Positions 32,176 through 36,892 of a stretch of 57,531 nucleotides of DNA are shown piece after piece. The stretch comes from Lautropia sp. SCN 69-89 (GTDB lineage Bacteria; Pseudomonadota; Gammaproteobacteria; Burkholderiales; Burkholderiaceae_E): NCBI GenBank assembly GCA_001724855.1, contig MEED01000044.1, positions 1 through 57,531 of the forward strand, in the 5' to 3' direction. The notes under the pieces were generated by a model. It was given only the letters and a program-made list of their open reading frames with translations, made no database searches and was not told where the DNA came from. The stretch's first letter is position 1, and each line of letters opens with the position of its first letter. The position numbers and the translations under genes were made by a program.

Positions 32176-33122
32176 ACATCGTGTACGCGACACTGTCGCA
32201 GGCGCTCGCCATCGTCGCCGCGCTGCTGCTCGCACCGGCGCTGACCGGATGGGTGAACATGTGCCGGGCCTGGCTGCAGAACCGCTCGGCGCCCAGCCTG
32301 TGGCAGCCCTACCGCACGCTGCACAAGCTGTTCGTCAAGGAGTCGGTCGTCGCCACGCACGCGTCGCCGATCTTTCGCGCGGCGCCCTACATCGTGTTCG
32401 GCTGCATGCTGGTCGCCTGCGCGATCGTGCCGACGCTGTCGACCGACCTGCCGATGTCGACCGCCGCCGACGCGATCGCGCTGGTCGGGCTGCTGGCGCT
32501 CGCGCGTGTCTTCGTGTCGCTGGCCGCAATGGACATCGGCACCGCCTTCGGCACGCTCGGTGCGCGCCGCGAGATGCTGGTCGGCTTCCTCGCCGAACCG
32601 GCGCTCCTGATGGTGCTGTTCTCGGCGTCGCTGATCTCGCAGTCGACGTCGCTGCCGACGATCGTCGAGACGCTCGGCCACCGCGAGCTGGCGATCCACC
32701 CGGTCCTGGCGTTCGCCGGTGTCGCGTTCACGATGGTCTCGCTGGCCGAGAACGCGCGCGTGCCGGTCGACAATCCGGCGACGCACCTCGAGCTGACGAT
32801 GATCCACGAGGCTCTTGTTCTCGAATACTCGGGTCGCCACCTCGCGCTGATCGAGTGGGCGGCCAGCCTGAAGCTGTTCGCGTATTCGTGCATCGGGCTG
32901 GCACTGTTCTTCCCGTGGGGAATCGCCGAGGCCCGCGCTCCGCTCGAACTCGTGCTCGCGCTGCCCGTGCTCGTCGTGAAGCTGGCGATCGGCGGCCTGA
33001 GCCTGGCCGTGCTCGAGACCGCGAGCGCGAAGATGCGCATCTTCCGCGTGCCCGAGTTCCTGGCGACCGCGTTCCTGCTGGCGGTGATCGGGCTGCTGGT
33101 GCACATCCTGCTGGGTGCCTGA
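32172..33122 (+). CDS. hyfC: hydrogenase-4 component C-like membrane subunit (NuoH-type)
   Basis: A 316-residue membrane protein with about eight helices, homologous to HyfC/HycD and NuoH, the subunit that connects the peripheral redox arm to the pump modules. Conserved pieces: NRSAPSLWQPYRTLHKLFVKE near residue 38-58, ALARVFVSLAAMDIGTAFGTLGARREM, and the acidic loop ENARVPVDNPATHLELTMIHEALVLEYSG that corresponds to the E-channel loop of complex I. The charged residues of the loop are intact. It overlaps hyfB and is followed by an 852-bp non-coding gap filled with inverted repeats. Confidence 0.92.
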   Translation: MNIVYATLSQALAIVAALLLAPALTGWVNMCRAWLQNRSAPSLWQPYRTLHKLFVKESVVATHASPIFRAAPYIVFGCMLVACAIVPTLSTDLPMSTAADAIALVGLLALARVFVSLAAMDIGTAFGTLGARREMLVGFLAEPALLMVLFSASLISQSTSLPTIVETLGHRELAIHPVLAFAGVAFTMVSLAENARVPVDNPATHLELTMIHEALVLEYSGRHLALIEWAASLKLFAYSCIGLALFFPWGIAEARAPLELVLALPVLVVKLAIGGLSLAVLETASAKMRIFRVPEFLATAFLLAVIGLLVHILLGA

Positions 33123-33141
33123 CGTGAGCGGCCTCACCCCT

Positions 33142-33564
33142 CCGACGTTGCCGCGTTCGCGCGATTCGGCAGCGGGCCGGCGCCAGCCGCAGCGGGCGGC
33201 CGTGGGGCGCGCTCGGTCGCAACGGGCTCGGGGGCGGCGGGGCCAGGCGCGCCGCGGCGCTCACTGCGGCGGTCGGTGCTGCGCACCGACTTCCCTGCGC
33301 GGCTCGCCTCGGGGTCGCGCGGCGAAACTCGCTGCGCTCGCTGCGCGAGCTCCGCTCGGACAGTCGCCGCGAGTCGGAAGTACGAAGCGCGCTTCGCGCG
33401 CCGACCCCGAGGCTGCGCTGCTCGGCGCCGCAGACATCGCCGCGGCGCGCCTGGCCCTGCCGCCCCCCGGCGCGCTGTGGCCGAGCGCGTCGCCGAGCGA
33501 GCCCCACGGCCGCCCATTGCGGCTGGCGCCGGGTCGCTGCCGAATCGCGCTCGGGAAACGTCGG
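33142..33564 (+). repeat. large nested inverted repeat A1 between hyfC and hyfE
   Basis: Left arm 33142-33259 is complementary to right arm 33438-33564 over about 120 bp with scattered mismatches and indels. The enclosed 178 nt contain an inner stem (CTCGGGGTCG with CGACCCCGAG) and the shared core GCGAAACTCGCTGCGCTCGC followed by TGCGCGAGCTCCGCTCGGAC. The same core recurs in the other three hyf-gap elements. Its orientation here is forward. Confidence 0.85.
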
Positions 33565-33613
33565 TGGCGTTCGTGCGCGGGAGGGAAGCGTTCGCTGCGA
33601 ACGCCGCTACTGT

Positions 33614-33954
33614 GCCTGCAAAGGTGTGGGCCAAGGGGCGCCCAACGGGGCTGGCCGCCGCGTGCCCAGGGGCCCCGGCCCTGCGGCGCCGGCATGCCTG
33701 TGCGCAGCCGAGAAGCGCAGCCGTGCCGGCCCGCGCGCGCAGCGCGCTTCGTACCTCTGACTCGCCCCGAGTGTCCGAGCGGAGCTCGCGCAGCGAGCGT
33801 AACGAGTTTCGCGGCGGGGCCGGCATTGCGAGCATCGGAAGGCACCCCCGCGCAGCGGGGGCAAGCACCGGCAAGCCGGCGCCGCAGGGCCGGGGCCCCT
33901 GGGCGCGCGCCGGCCAGCCCCGTTGGGCGCCCCTTGGCCCACACCTTTGCAGGC
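33614..33954 (+). repeat. large nested inverted repeat A2 between hyfC and hyfE
   Basis: Arms 33614-33693 and 33875-33954 are each 80 bp and complementary at 78 positions. They enclose 181 nt carrying the shared core in reverse orientation (GTCCGAGCGGAGCTCGCGCA) inside an inner stem of GTGCCGGCCC with GGGCCGGCAT. The structure ends 8 nt before the probable hyfE ribosome binding site. The rest of the 33123-33974 gap (short stretches at both ends and 33565-33613) shows nothing else recognisable. Confidence 0.9.
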
Positions 33955-33974
33955 ACCGCGCGGAGCGCCCACCG

Positions 33975-34634
33975 ATGAGCGCCCTGTTCACCCAGTTCAT
34001 CAACCTGCTCGGCGCGCTGCTGCTGCTGCTCGCGTTCGCGATGATCTCGCAGCGGCGGATCCTGTCGCTGATCCACCTGTTCACGCTGCAGGGCGCAACG
34101 CTGGTGGTCGCCACCACCGCGGTCGGCTACGTGACCCAGCAGCCGCACCTGTACGTGTCGGCCGCTTTGACCTTCGTCCTCAAGGTCGTGTTGATTCCGG
34201 TGCTGCTGCACCGCGTGATCGACCGCCTCGACATCCGCTGGGACGTCGAAACGCTGATCAACATCCCGACCACCATGCTGATCGGCATCCTGCTGGTGAT
34301 CTTCTCGTTCAACCTGGCCACGCCGATCGCGCAGCTGTCGTCGTCGATCGCACGCGGGTCGCTGGGCATCGCACTGGCGTGCGTGCTGCTGTCCTTCCTG
34401 ATGATGATCGCCCGCGCGAAGGCGGTGCCGCAGGTGATCGGCTTCCTGTCGATGGAAAACGGCTTGTTCTTCGCGGCGACCTCGGCGACCTACGGCATGC
34501 CGATGGTGGTCGAGTTGGGCATCGCGCTGGACGTGCTGATCGGGGTACTGATCCTCGGCGTGTTCATGTTCCAGATCCGCGAGCAGTTCGACAGCCTGGA
34601 CATCCGGCACCTCGAGCGGCTGAAGGAGGACTGA
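33975..34634 (+). CDS. hyfE: hydrogenase-4 component E-like membrane subunit
   Basis: A 219-residue HyfE homologue with about seven hydrophobic helices; its C-terminal part resembles NuoK. The conserved glutamate is present in MENGLFFAAT (about residue 162). QREFILD-type family motifs appear here as ISQRRILSLIHLFTLQGATL and the C-terminus is FQIREQFDSLDIRHLERLKED. GGAG at 33962-33965 is a fair ribosome binding site. It is isolated from its operon neighbours by two repeat-filled gaps (852 and 803 bp), unlike the usual tight packing of hyf genes. Confidence 0.9.
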   Translation: MSALFTQFINLLGALLLLLAFAMISQRRILSLIHLFTLQGATLVVATTAVGYVTQQPHLYVSAALTFVLKVVLIPVLLHRVIDRLDIRWDVETLINIPTTMLIGILLVIFSFNLATPIAQLSSSIARGSLGIALACVLLSFLMMIARAKAVPQVIGFLSMENGLFFAATSATYGMPMVVELGIALDVLIGVLILGVFMFQIREQFDSLDIRHLERLKED

Positions 34635-34669
34635 GGTGACGGACCTCCCCCTTCGAGCGTTGAGGCGTC

Positions 34670-34989
34670 GCGACGTGCGCTGGCGGCCCGGCGCGACGGC
34701 GTATGGCGTTCGGCCCGAGCGGGCGCGGCAGCCGGCGGCGATGACGGCGGCGGTCGGTGCTGTGCACCGACTACCCTGCGCTGCTCGCCCCGGGGTCGCG
34801 CGGCGAAACTCGCTGCGCTCGCTGCGCGAGCTCCGCTCGGACACTCGCCGCGAGAATGATGAACGAAGCGCGCTTCGCGCGCCGACCCCGAGGCTGCGCT
34901 GCTCGGCACCGCCGGAATCGCCGCCGGCTGCCGCGCCCGCTCGGGCCGAACGCCATACGCCGTCGCGCCGGGCCGCCAGCGCACGTCGC
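34670..34989 (+). repeat. large nested inverted repeat B1 between hyfE and hyfF
   Basis: Arms 34670-34742 and 34917-34989 are a perfect 73-bp inverted repeat. The 174 nt between them hold the shared core in forward orientation within the inner CGGGGTCG / CGACCCCG stem, closely matching the core of element A1, while the outer arms differ from A1. Confidence 0.92.
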
Positions 34990-35084
34990 TCGGCGAACCG
35001 TGACGGTGTTCGCCCCGACGGAGCACGAGTCGGAGCGTGCGTCGCAGCAACCGTGGCGACCACAGCGCGCGCCACCACGGTATC

Positions 35085-35395
35085 GGCAAAGGCTCGGGCC
35101 AGCGCGCAGGCAAAGGGCCGAGCCCGCACGCCGGCCGGCGGTGGCCGGCATGCCTGTGCGCAGCCGAGAAGCGCAGCGGTGCCGGCCCGCGCGCGCAGCG
35201 CGCTTCGTACTTCTGACTCGCCGCGAGTGTCCGAGCGGAGCTCGCGCAGCGAGCGCAGCGAGTTTCGCGGCGGGGCCGGCACTGCGAGCATCGGAGGGAA
35301 CCCCCGCGAAGCGGGGGCAAGCGCCGGCATGCCGGCCACCGCCGGCCGGCGTGCGGGCTCGGCCCTTTGCCTGCGCGCTGGCCCGAGCCTTTGCC
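35085..35395 (+). repeat. large nested inverted repeat B2 between hyfE and hyfF
   Basis: Arms 35085-35153 and 35327-35395 are a perfect 69-bp inverted repeat around 173 nt that contain the shared core in reverse orientation, very similar to the core of A2. The outer arms are unrelated to A2. It ends about 30 nt before the hyfF ribosome binding site. The 34635-35437 gap shows no other feature besides B1 and the 12-bp tandem repeat. Confidence 0.92.
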
Positions 35396-35419
35396 CGAGC
35401 CTTTGCCCGAGCCTTTGCC
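35384..35419 (+). repeat. 12-bp direct repeat, three copies, before hyfF
   Basis: CGAGCCTTTGCC occurs three times in tandem (35384-35395, 35396-35407, 35408-35419). The first copy forms the end of the right arm of element B2, so the tract looks like slippage from the arm. It ends 6 nt before the GGAG of hyfF. Confidence 0.9.
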
Positions 35420-35437
35420 CGCACTGGAGCCACTGAC

Positions 35438-36892
35438 TTGGAAGCGTTGCTGTTCGTGCTCGGGATCCCGCTGGTGGGCGGCGCGGTACTGGCGTTGTGG
35501 GGCCACCGGGACAGTGCGATGGCGCTGAACGTCGCGTTCAGTTTCGGCACGTTCGTGGCCGCGTGCGCGCTGACCGCACAGGTCATCGCCGGCGGCCCGC
35601 TGTTCGTCTGGGAGCGCGAGTTCTACATCGACGCGCTCAACGTGTTCCTGGTCACGCTGACCGCGTTCGTCGGGCTGACCACGGCGATCTTCTCGCGACC
35701 CTACATGCGCGTCGAGCGCGACCACGGCAAGATGACGCCGCCGCGGCTTCGCCTGTACCACGCGATGTACCAGCTCTTCAGTTTCACGATGCTGCTGGCG
35801 CTGATGACCAACAACATGGGCATCCTGTGGGTGGCGATGGAAGCCGCAACACTGACCACCGTGCTGCTGGTCAGCGTCTACCGCACCGCGGCCAGCCTCG
35901 AGGCGGCCTGGAAGTACTTCATCCTGTGCGGCGTCGGCATCGCGCAGGCGCTGTTCGGCACGGTGCTGCTCTACATGGCGGCCGAGAAGGTGATCGGCGC
36001 CGAGGGCGGCGCACTGCTGTGGACCAACCTCGACGCGGTCAAGGCGCAGCTCGACCCGAACATCATCACGCTGGCCTTCGCGTTCCTGTTCATCGGCTAC
36101 GGCACGAAGGTCGGTCTGGTGCCGGTGCACAACTGGCTGCCCGACGCGCACGCCGAGGGCCCGACGCCGGTGTCGGCGGTGCTCTCCGGCCTGCTGCTGA
36201 ACGTGGCGCTCTACGCGATCCTGCGCTGCAAGGTGCTCACCGACGGCGCGCTCGAGAGTCCGCTGGCCGGCCGGATGATGATCGGCTTCGGACTGGTGTC
36301 GGTGGTCGCCGCCGCCTTCCTGCTGACGCGGCAGAAGGACGTCAAGCGGATGTTCGCGTACTCGTCGATCGAGCACATGGGGCTGATGACCTTCGCGTTC
36401 GGCCTGGGCGGGCCGATCGCCAACTTCGCCGGTCTGCTGCACATGACCGTCCATTCTCTGGTCAAGTCGGCGATCTTCTTCGCGGTCGGCCACGCGACGC
36501 AGAAGGCCGGCACGCAGGTGATGGACGACATCCGCGGGCTGATCCGGGTCAGCCCGACGATCGGCTGGGGAATGATGCTGGGGTCGCTGGCGATCCTCGG
36601 CATGCCGCCGTTCGGCGTGTTCGCCAGCGAGTTCCTGATCATCACCACCGCGATGCGCGAACAGCCGTGGGCGACGCCGTTCCTGCTGGTGGCGCTCGGC
36701 GTCGCGTTCGCGTCGGTGTTCGCCCGAGTCCAGCCGATGGTGTTCGGCGACACGAGCCTCGAGCGGCTCGCGCATCGTCCGGCGATGCTGCCGGTGTTCG
36801 TTCACCTGGCGCTCGGGCTGCTGCTCGGGCTCTACGTTCCGCCGTACCTCGACGCTTGGTATCGCGAGGCGGCGCGGATGATCGGGGGCTGA
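35438..36892 (+). CDS. hyfF: hydrogenase-4 component F-like antiporter-type membrane subunit
   Basis: A 484-residue HyfF homologue (NuoN/NuoL family) with about 13-14 helices. The proton-path residues are kept: E135 in WVAMEAATLTTVLL, K224 in YGTKVGLVPVHNWLPDAHAEGPTPVSA with H231, and a lysine in HSLVKSAIFF. The TTG at 35438 is chosen because GGAG lies 8 nt upstream and the N-terminus then aligns with the family (EALLFVLGIPLVGG); no ATG or GTG fits. It is followed 4 bp later by hyfG. A non-ATG start just after a long repeat structure suggests reduced or coupled translation. Confidence 0.9.
   Translation: MEALLFVLGIPLVGGAVLALWGHRDSAMALNVAFSFGTFVAACALTAQVIAGGPLFVWEREFYIDALNVFLVTLTAFVGLTTAIFSRPYMRVERDHGKMTPPRLRLYHAMYQLFSFTMLLALMTNNMGILWVAMEAATLTTVLLVSVYRTAASLEAAWKYFILCGVGIAQALFGTVLLYMAAEKVIGAEGGALLWTNLDAVKAQLDPNIITLAFAFLFIGYGTKVGLVPVHNWLPDAHAEGPTPVSAVLSGLLLNVALYAILRCKVLTDGALESPLAGRMMIGFGLVSVVAAAFLLTRQKDVKRMFAYSSIEHMGLMTFAFGLGGPIANFAGLLHMTVHSLVKSAIFFAVGHATQKAGTQVMDDIRGLIRVSPTIGWGMMLGSLAILGMPPFGVFASEFLIITTAMREQPWATPFLLVALGVAFASVFARVQPMVFGDTSLERLAHRPAMLPVFVHLALGLLLGLYVPPYLDAWYREAARMIGG

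What the first reader, a model, noticed from the sequence alone, without database searches (positions are those of the whole stretch)
33142..35395. Four giant nested inverted repeats fill the only large gaps in the hyf operon
Seen: elements A1 (33142-33564), A2 (33614-33954), B1 (34670-34989) and B2 (35085-35395). Outer arms are 118-127 bp (imperfect), 80 bp (78 matched), 73 bp (perfect) and 69 bp (perfect). Arms differ between elements, but all enclose a 173-181-nt core with the same central block (GCGAAACTCGCTGCGCTCGC then TGCGCGAGCTCCGCTCGGAC), forward in A1/B1 and reversed in A2/B2. All other hyf junctions are tight. Each pair precedes one gene start (hyfE, hyfF). Inference: a mobile or self-copying palindromic element, or an RNA structure tuning subunit stoichiometry by RNase III cleavage or translation control. 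I recall related AAACTCGCTGCGCTCGCT blocks in other Burkholderiales but cannot verify.
Basis: partly seen in the sequence, partly recalled or inferred. Interest (0 to 1): 0.78.

Follow-up and report, generated by a model that had tools for sequence, protein, structure and literature searches.

The report
Mobile hairpins with self-matching, ever-changing arms
Two copies of a repeated, hairpin-shaped DNA element sit inside a bacterial hydrogenase operon; in related bacteria its centre stays alike while its long arms usually differ from site to site yet still match themselves almost perfectly, which looks like DNA copying re-matching the two halves.

Summary
The four "elements" are two composite units (A1+A2, B1+B2), each a type-1 palindrome, a linker and a type-2 palindrome: copies of an interspersed repeat of Burkholderiaceae, not a hyf device. 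The hyfC|hyfE junction is empty in 4 of 9 other genus genomes with hyfE, and hyfE|hyfF is tight in 8 of 9. Of 149 type-1 copies, 71 have arms of 24-59 nt and 66 have arms of 62-175 nt. Short arms are shared between copies where I could test it. Long arms are private: G005 cores 97% alike carry arms no more alike than unrelated ones, and the same site in another species usually has other arms. Yet arms are ~97% complementary, and where alignable their substitutions are mostly mirrored (84 vs 21, six pairs). G.T mismatches do not exceed A.C, arms are GC-richer than the linker, and the 5' arm has G>C in 61 of 65. Arm matching is therefore probably kept by a DNA-level process, such as intrastrand template switching or hairpin conversion, rather than by RNA function. 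59 of 63 long-arm copies directly follow a co-directional gene. Mobilising enzyme and cause of arm growth: unknown.

The parts
33142..33564 (+). A1: type-1 palindrome, behind the hyfC stop codon (33120-33122); gapped imperfect arms of about 110-133 nt
33267..33430 (+). type-1 core of A1 (conserved; contains small covarying stems)
33565..33611 (.). linker of composite unit A
   Evidence: lies between A1 and A2; same order in other copies
33612..33956 (-). A2: type-2 palindrome (shared central block on the opposite strand), arms ~82-87 nt
34670..34989 (+). B1: type-1 palindrome behind the hyfE stop codon (34632-34634); 73 nt perfect arms
34748..34911 (+). type-1 core of B1 (93% identical to the A1 core)
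34990..35084 (.). linker of composite unit B
35085..35395 (-). B2: type-2 palindrome; 70 nt perfect arms
35396..35437 (.). right edge of unit B: further CCCGAGCCTTTG repeats, then CACTGGAGCCACTGAC before the hyfF TTG; GGAG..ACTGAC resembles the undisturbed hyfE end (possible target duplication, inference)

Best explanation
SHOWN: the gaps are two copies of a ~0.5-0.85 kb bipartite palindromic repeat (type-1 hairpin, linker, type-2 hairpin) scattered in Burkholderiaceae genomes. Long-arm copies nearly always sit directly behind a gene, in the gene's direction. In part of one genus the arms are long, usually private to a site, GC-rich, and self-complementary although their sequence is free; where arms can still be aligned, most substitutions are mirrored between the two arms. 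INFERRED: the repeat is a non-autonomous mobile element. Its arms are kept matched not by selection on RNA but by a DNA process that rewrites one arm from the other when the strand folds back, either intrastrand template switching at the replication fork or repair/conversion in the folded hairpin. One-sided mutations, slips and block changes thus become two-sided; arms can lengthen and drift while staying palindromes, and the core stays alike among copies by selection or by ectopic conversion. For hyf the insertions are probably incidental: a GGAG and a start codon remain at each right edge, so translation can restart, though coupling to the upstream gene is interrupted.
For: Family and insertion: 11 strong copies in the own genome; core in 21 of 101 related genomes, 17 of the 18 of the genus; hyfC|hyfE 852 nt in G000, 765 in G005, 540 in G009, remnants of 243 (G013) and 84 (G014), empty (2-11 nt) in G015, G006, G002, G010; hyfE|hyfF filled in G000, 137-nt remnant in G013, tight in the other ten rows (G004 not scorable at hyfC|hyfE). 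Private arms: non-orthologous arms 0.57 identical vs 0.53 after shuffling; in G005 12 core pairs at >=97% have arms at 0.60 (max 0.69), whereas in the Rhizobacter MAG 10 such pairs have arms at 0.93. No good source of the window's arms elsewhere in the genome (best 82% over 48 nt, 91% over 32 nt). Mirrored vs unmirrored substitutions: L121/L126 23 vs 3, L127/L138 7 vs 2, L275/L154 20 vs 4 plus 10 mirrored gap columns, L253/L281 18 vs 3, L231/L240 16 vs 5, L126/L233 10 vs 5. Not RNA: G.T 69 vs A.C 77 in arms (p 0.56), 22 vs 28 in the core, where 17 of 30 predicted pairs show two or more Watson-Crick types. GC of arm middles 0.836 vs linker 0.666. 5' arm middle has G>C in 61 of 65 copies, the asymmetry that PMC8794818 (Discussion read) derives for intrastrand template switching. 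Position: 59 of 63 long-arm copies co-directional with the gene just upstream, 0-87 nt behind it; 21 of 22 in G005.
Against: The closest orthologous pair (L271/L268) shows 0 mirrored and 4 unmirrored differences, all in the right arm; this fits 'mutate first, match later' but is no support by itself. Pairs counted for mirroring were chosen because their arms align. The same theory predicts T>A in the 5' arm: type-1 long arms show it weakly (33 vs 18 copies), but short arms and type-2 arms show the opposite (AT skews -0.13, -0.12, -0.21). The G-rich 5' arm may be inherited, since short arms are G-skewed too (0.138). Type-2 arms alone lean to G.T (17 vs 7, p 0.06). DNA-level selection for a cruciform would also give mirrored changes without wobble bias. 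Neighbouring non-coding DNA is also strongly diverged at orthologous sites. No mobilising enzyme was found, no target duplication proved, and most genomes are MAGs.
Confidence: 0.68

Rival explanations
1. The hairpins are functional 3'-UTR RNA structures (RNase III sites, mRNA stabilisers or translation uncouplers), and compensatory selection on the RNA keeps the arms paired.
For: 59 of 63 long-arm copies directly follow a co-directional gene; very stable RNA fold (z -23); type-2 arms lean to G.T over A.C (17 vs 7).
Against: No overall excess of G.T over A.C in arms (69 vs 77) or core (22 vs 28); mirrored gap columns and adjacent multi-base changes; junction empty in genus relatives with open hyfE frames; no Rfam match up to E 1; no terminator-like site inside an element.
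Confidence: 0.12
2. Each arm pair is made anew at transposition, the element re-inserting repeatedly at preferred sites behind genes, so that orthologous sites carry unrelated arms.
For: Orthologous cores are the best match in only 8 of 34 pairs, as if whole elements had been replaced; hyfC|hyfE occupancy needs 2 changes on the hyf tree.
Against: Some paralogs share related, diverged arms (L121/L126 79%, L127/L138 80%), so arms can travel with the element; two orthologous pairs keep closely alike arms; flanking remnants are shared between species at hyfC|hyfE. Concerted evolution of the core explains the first point too.
Confidence: 0.12
3. The arms are assembly or fold-back sequencing artefacts.
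For: One long-arm candidate (G055 contig C71) is a contig-end fold-back that includes coding sequence; contigs C41, C42, C23 and C52 of the own genome end in these repeats.
Against: The window copies are internal; 22 long-arm copies lie inside one 3.73 Mb contig of G005; long arms recur in 10 genus assemblies; arms carry mismatches, and orthologous arms diverge.
Confidence: 0.03
4. Arms grew in this part of the genus because a SbcCD-like (Mre11-Rad50 / YhaO-YhaN-type) hairpin nuclease was lost.
For: A SbcD-like match is found in G001, G003, G008 and G011 (longest arm 49 nt) and in none of the ten clear long-arm genomes.
Against: 16 of 20 named short-arm genomes also lack a match, as does G002; the long-arm genomes placed on the rpoB tree may be one lineage, so it may be one event. 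Fisher p 0.037 ignores this and its table counted 11 long-arm genomes, one more than is clear. All matches within the family lie under the model's cut-off.
Confidence: 0.1

Closest known systems
REP/REPIN elements with RAYT (Y1) transposases
   Same: Palindromic interspersed repeats, mostly downstream of coding regions (PMC3733652, passages seen)
   Different: Far larger, two palindromes per unit, no GTAG tag in the ends read, no Y1_Tnp match in G000, G002, G005 or G006
CGTC-tagged REPs (PMC3733652, passages)
   Same: Many type-1 left ends read GCGTCGCGGCAG; such repeats lack a dedicated transposase
   Different: CGTC-REP stems are 8-9 bp, usually with A-T in the first two pairs and often a CCA tail; here arms are 24-175 nt and G+C-rich
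Bacterial MITEs (recalled definition)
   Same: Repeated palindromic element, present or absent at orthologous sites
   Different: Terminal repeats of MITEs are shared between copies; here long arms are private
Large perfect inverted repeats in bacteria (PMC13155455, passages)
   Same: That survey reports perfect inverted repeats enriched more than 12-fold downstream of transcription ends in Bacteria, and symmetric insertions and deletions in large plasmid repeats
   Different: Surveyed repeats have spacers up to 8 nt; here a ~165-nt conserved core is the spacer and copies form one family
Palindromes kept matched by template switching: Nematomorpha coding palindromes (PMC6649704, abstract and passages), RNA stems (PMC8794818, abstract and Discussion)
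   Same: Inverted repeats whose arms change in concert
   Different: Here dozens of paralogous copies share a core and differ in their arms
Double-hairpin elements of fungal mitochondria (recalled; seen only in a search listing and a reference entry)
   Same: Two-hairpin mobile units
   Different: Organellar and small; arm evolution not compared here

Membership tests
REP/REPIN (RAYT-associated) | Y1 (IS200/IS605-type) transposase in the genome | tested here: not met
   PF01797 sought in 21 genomes, 13 of the 18 of the genus (G000-G012): none in G000, G002, G005, G006; only a match at the cut-off in G010 and one below it in G012 (6 of 21 at E <= 0.001)
REP/REPIN (RAYT-associated) | 20-40 bp palindrome with GTAG tag | tested here: not met
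   Arms 24-175 nt around a ~165 nt core; left ends mostly GCGTCGCG(G/C)CAG
CGTC-tagged REP | 8-9 bp stem, A-T first pairs, CCA tail | tested here: not met
   Ends against the description in PMC3733652
MITE | Repeat present or absent at orthologous sites | tested here: met
MITE | Terminal inverted repeats shared with an autonomous transposon | not tested
   No autonomous relative was sought; only Y1 transposases were searched
MITE | Target site duplication | tested here: inconclusive
   Candidate 7-10 nt duplications at the two hyf sites; none visible to me in the Rhizobacter copies
Intrinsic terminator | G+C-rich hairpin followed by a T run | tested here: not met
   2 terminator-like sites in 33000-35600, both inside genes; shuffles give 0.9
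Known structured RNA (Rfam 15) | Match to a covariance model | tested here: not met
   0 matches at E up to 1
Inverted repeat maintained by template switching | Mirrored (concerted) changes in both arms | tested here: met
   84 mirrored vs 21 unmirrored substitutions in six non-overlapping pairs, five of six with mirrored in excess
Inverted repeat maintained by template switching | 5'-base rule: G>C and T>A in the 5' arm | tested here: inconclusive
   G>C in 61 of 65; T>A 33 vs 18 in type-1 long arms, but A>T in short and type-2 arms
Inverted repeat maintained by template switching | Direct observation of switch events | not testable with these tools
   Needs mutation accumulation or strain-level time series

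The most novel reading that the evidence does not exclude
A class of bacterial mobile palindromes whose arms are free in sequence but continually re-matched by self-templated copying, so that every copy acquires its own private, growing barcode-like stem around a common core; the 5' arm acts as master, and arm length is capped by a hairpin nuclease that this lineage has lost.
Probability: 0.2. Interest if true: 0.82.

Novelty: new variant of a known kind. Interest (0 to 1): 0.6.

Why it matters
Palindrome correction is known from laboratory reporters and isolated loci (partly recalled). Here nature supplies dozens of paralogous palindromes with a common core in several related genomes, so the rate, tract length, direction and composition bias of arm-to-arm copying can be read from sequence. 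It also gives a caution: covariation in a hairpin is not by itself evidence of RNA function, since here it occurs without an excess of wobble intermediates and in arms that have no conserved sequence.

Tried and rejected
Source of the window's arms elsewhere in the own genome: none convincing. RAYT transposase: not found where needed. Rfam: none. Terminators: none in the elements. SbcCD loss as the cause of arm growth: holds inside the genus, fails as a general rule. Arms evolving far faster than neighbouring non-coding DNA: not shown; at orthologous sites the linker (0.62) and the 40 nt upstream (0.70) are also strongly diverged against 0.52 for arm middles. Vertical inheritance of the core at each site: not supported (best match in 8 of 34). 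Target duplication: not resolved.

Literature: eight of ten searches used; nothing in the listings describes this repeat. Searches found 0 papers; two searches listed 12 of 26 and 8 of 1,274, so their lists were partial. Open-licence text only. The survey of inverted repeats in Proteobacteria (PMC5941160) is not held and was seen only as a reference entry.

Own errors and dropped rows: the 'hyfC' probe was in a wrong frame (the true hyfC ends at 33122; PF00146); junction lengths rest on the DNA anchor. In some searches some named contigs were labelled as separate genomes; one search shows that they belong to G002, G009, G010, G012, G013, G015, G017, G006 or the Rhizobacter MAG. One search recounts with corrected labels; the orthologous pairs cited still join different genomes. 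Of 149 type-1 copies, 66 counted as long, 71 as short, 12 as neither. The 12 include L034 of the own genome (99 nt, 100% paired), left out by my rule that arms start within 30 nt of the core. The G055 copy in the 66 is a fold-back artefact, dropped for (65 left). The gene caller is a simple codon-usage scorer trained on five window genes; in 5 of its 59 co-directional cases the reading frame runs up to the arm with no stop in the flank, and at least one call (L035, scored '-') looks wrong by eye.

Full report
WHAT IS THERE. The window is contig C44 of a 3.8 Mb, 70-contig draft genome. Between hyfC (stop 33120-33122) and hyfE (33975-34634), and between hyfE and hyfF (35438-36892), lie 852 and ~803 nt (one search counts 806, including the hyfE stop) where empty relatives have 0-11 nt. 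Each gap holds a type-1 palindrome, a linker and a type-2 palindrome. Type 1 and type 2 share the central block on opposite strands. Arms were verified by repeat search and fold; A1 folds 16 sd below its shuffles as DNA and the B unit 23 sd below as RNA.

A REPEAT FAMILY. The A1 core finds 11 strong copies in the own genome; four other contigs end in them. Of 101 related genomes, 21 have the core at E <= 1e-6: 17 of the 18 of the genus and 4 others of the family, one of these a 40-nt match. In G005 (MAG JAOSJU01, four contigs, 88% complete) 24 type-1 cores were found, nine with a type-2 partner 330-510 nt away.

INSERTION. At hyfC|hyfE the element is present in G000, G005 and G009 (the last with half of type 2), a remnant in G013 and G014, and absent in G006, G015, G002 and G010 and in two rows of other genera (G059, G032); G004 could not be scored because its hyfE match starts late. 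At hyfE|hyfF it is present in G000, a remnant in G013, and absent in the other ten rows. On a hyf tree the hyfC|hyfE state needs two changes. Of 63 long-arm copies with enough flank, 59 follow a co-directional gene at 0-87 nt (p 1e-13 against even odds; copies at one orthologous site are not independent, and in 5 of the 59 no stop was seen before the arm). In G005 alone it is 21 of 22. Short-arm copies: 42 of 62 co-directional, mostly farther away; many of the rest are type-2-bounded copies read from the other side.

ARMS. 149 distinct type-1-core copies were measured. Arms fall in two classes: 71 copies of 24-59 nt, and 66 copies of 62-175 nt with median 92 nt and median pairing 97%. In the Rhizobacter MAG (11 copies) and in G002 (6) the arms are shared between copies: 0.93 identical when cores are at least 94% alike. 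In G005 (22), 12 core pairs at >=97% carry arms at 0.60; unrelated arms score 0.57 and shuffled ones 0.53. Orthologous sites (35 pairs, flanks 80-96% identical) have cores 0.83-0.99 alike and arms 0.39-0.73, except two pairs at 0.88-1.0. The linker and the upstream 40 nt are also much diverged at such sites, so the arms need not be hypermutable: they are free in sequence and constrained to match themselves. Outer ends (GCGTCGCGGCAG; CCTTTGCnCGCGCA) recur in many short- and long-armed copies, so arms probably grew between the ends and the core.

HOW THE ARMS STAY MATCHED. Four-row alignments of two elements (both arms of each) show substitutions common to both arms of one element: 23 mirrored vs 3 not (L121/L126, two sites in one genome), 7 vs 2, 20 vs 4 with 10 mirrored gap columns, 18 vs 3, 16 vs 5; the closest pair L271/L268 has 0 vs 4, all in the right arm. 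Overlapping pairs agree (10 vs 5, 23 vs 6, 20 vs 2). These pairs were picked because they align. If RNA pairing were selected, G.T mismatches on the gene strand should exceed A.C: overall they do not (arms 69 vs 77; core 22 vs 28), although type-2 arms alone lean that way (17 vs 7). The core also covaries (17 of 30 pairs of a predicted structure have at least two Watson-Crick types). Arm middles are 83.6% G+C against 66.6% in the linker. The left (5') arm middle has more G than C in 61 of 65 copies (3 the other way) and more T than A in 33 against 18, but short and type-2 arms have more A than T. PMC8794818 (Discussion) derives a G-C and T-A preference from intrastrand template switching that follows the 5' base; only the G part fits throughout. 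Short arms are G-skewed too, so inheritance is possible. I conclude, at about 0.7, that a DNA-level copying process keeps the arms matched.

WHY LONG ARMS HERE. Ten genus genomes have clear long arms. The six of them with an rpoB row fall in one fork with G002 and G011, unresolved inside. None of the ten has a SbcD-like match, while G001, G003, G008 and G011, with arms up to 49 nt, have one; the G003-type protein itself is in G001, G003, G007 and G008 but not G011. That protein is a metallophosphoesterase followed by an AAA_27 ATPase. But G002 and 16 of 20 named short-arm genomes also lack a match. This is suggestive and confounded with descent.

KNOWN OR NEW. It works like a MITE-type palindromic repeat whose hairpins are maintained by palindrome correction. 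By the tests above it is not a RAYT-linked REP and not a CGTC-REP. Eight literature searches listed no description of this repeat; open-licence text only, some lists partial. Concerted change of inverted-repeat arms is a known idea (PMC6649704 passages; PMC13155455 passages). New here, as far as I could see, is a multi-copy family with a common core and private, long, co-evolving arms.

Noticed in passing
L187, L195, L160, L198 (Rhizobacter MAG JAMLIM01), inside the type-2 half: An ~81-nt second palindromic insert (CACAAGCGGTCC..GGACCGCTTGTG) present in these copies and absent in others.
   Followed up: no
L125, L126, L132 (G005), right of the type-2 core: A different repeat (starting GCCGGTGCAGTGTGCCCGCCTATGCGGCGC or close to it) seems to have landed in or replaced the type-2 half of three copies.
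   Followed up: no
L352 (G055 contig C71, start): Contig-end fold-back: the first ~110 nt are the reverse complement of nearby sequence including coding DNA, an assembly artefact that mimics a long arm.
   Followed up: yes
window 35382-35417: Three tandem copies of CCCGAGCCTTTG at and right of the B2 end, repeating the outer end of its arm.
   Followed up: no
window 33975 and 35438, and orthologs: hyfE starts with ATG in genomes with the insertion or a remnant and with GTG in three of four empty genus genomes (G006, G015, G002); in the window each right edge carries a GGAG before the start codon (read by eye).
   Followed up: partly
L155 (JAHCAM010000073.1, MAG labelled Steroidobacteraceae): A long-arm type-1 copy on a 3.6 kb contig of a MAG from another family, perhaps a mis-binned contig.
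   Followed up: no
L322:1179-5974 (G003): A SbcD-like metallophosphoesterase followed by a 1175-aa AAA_27 ATPase, patchily present in the genus and family.
   Followed up: partly
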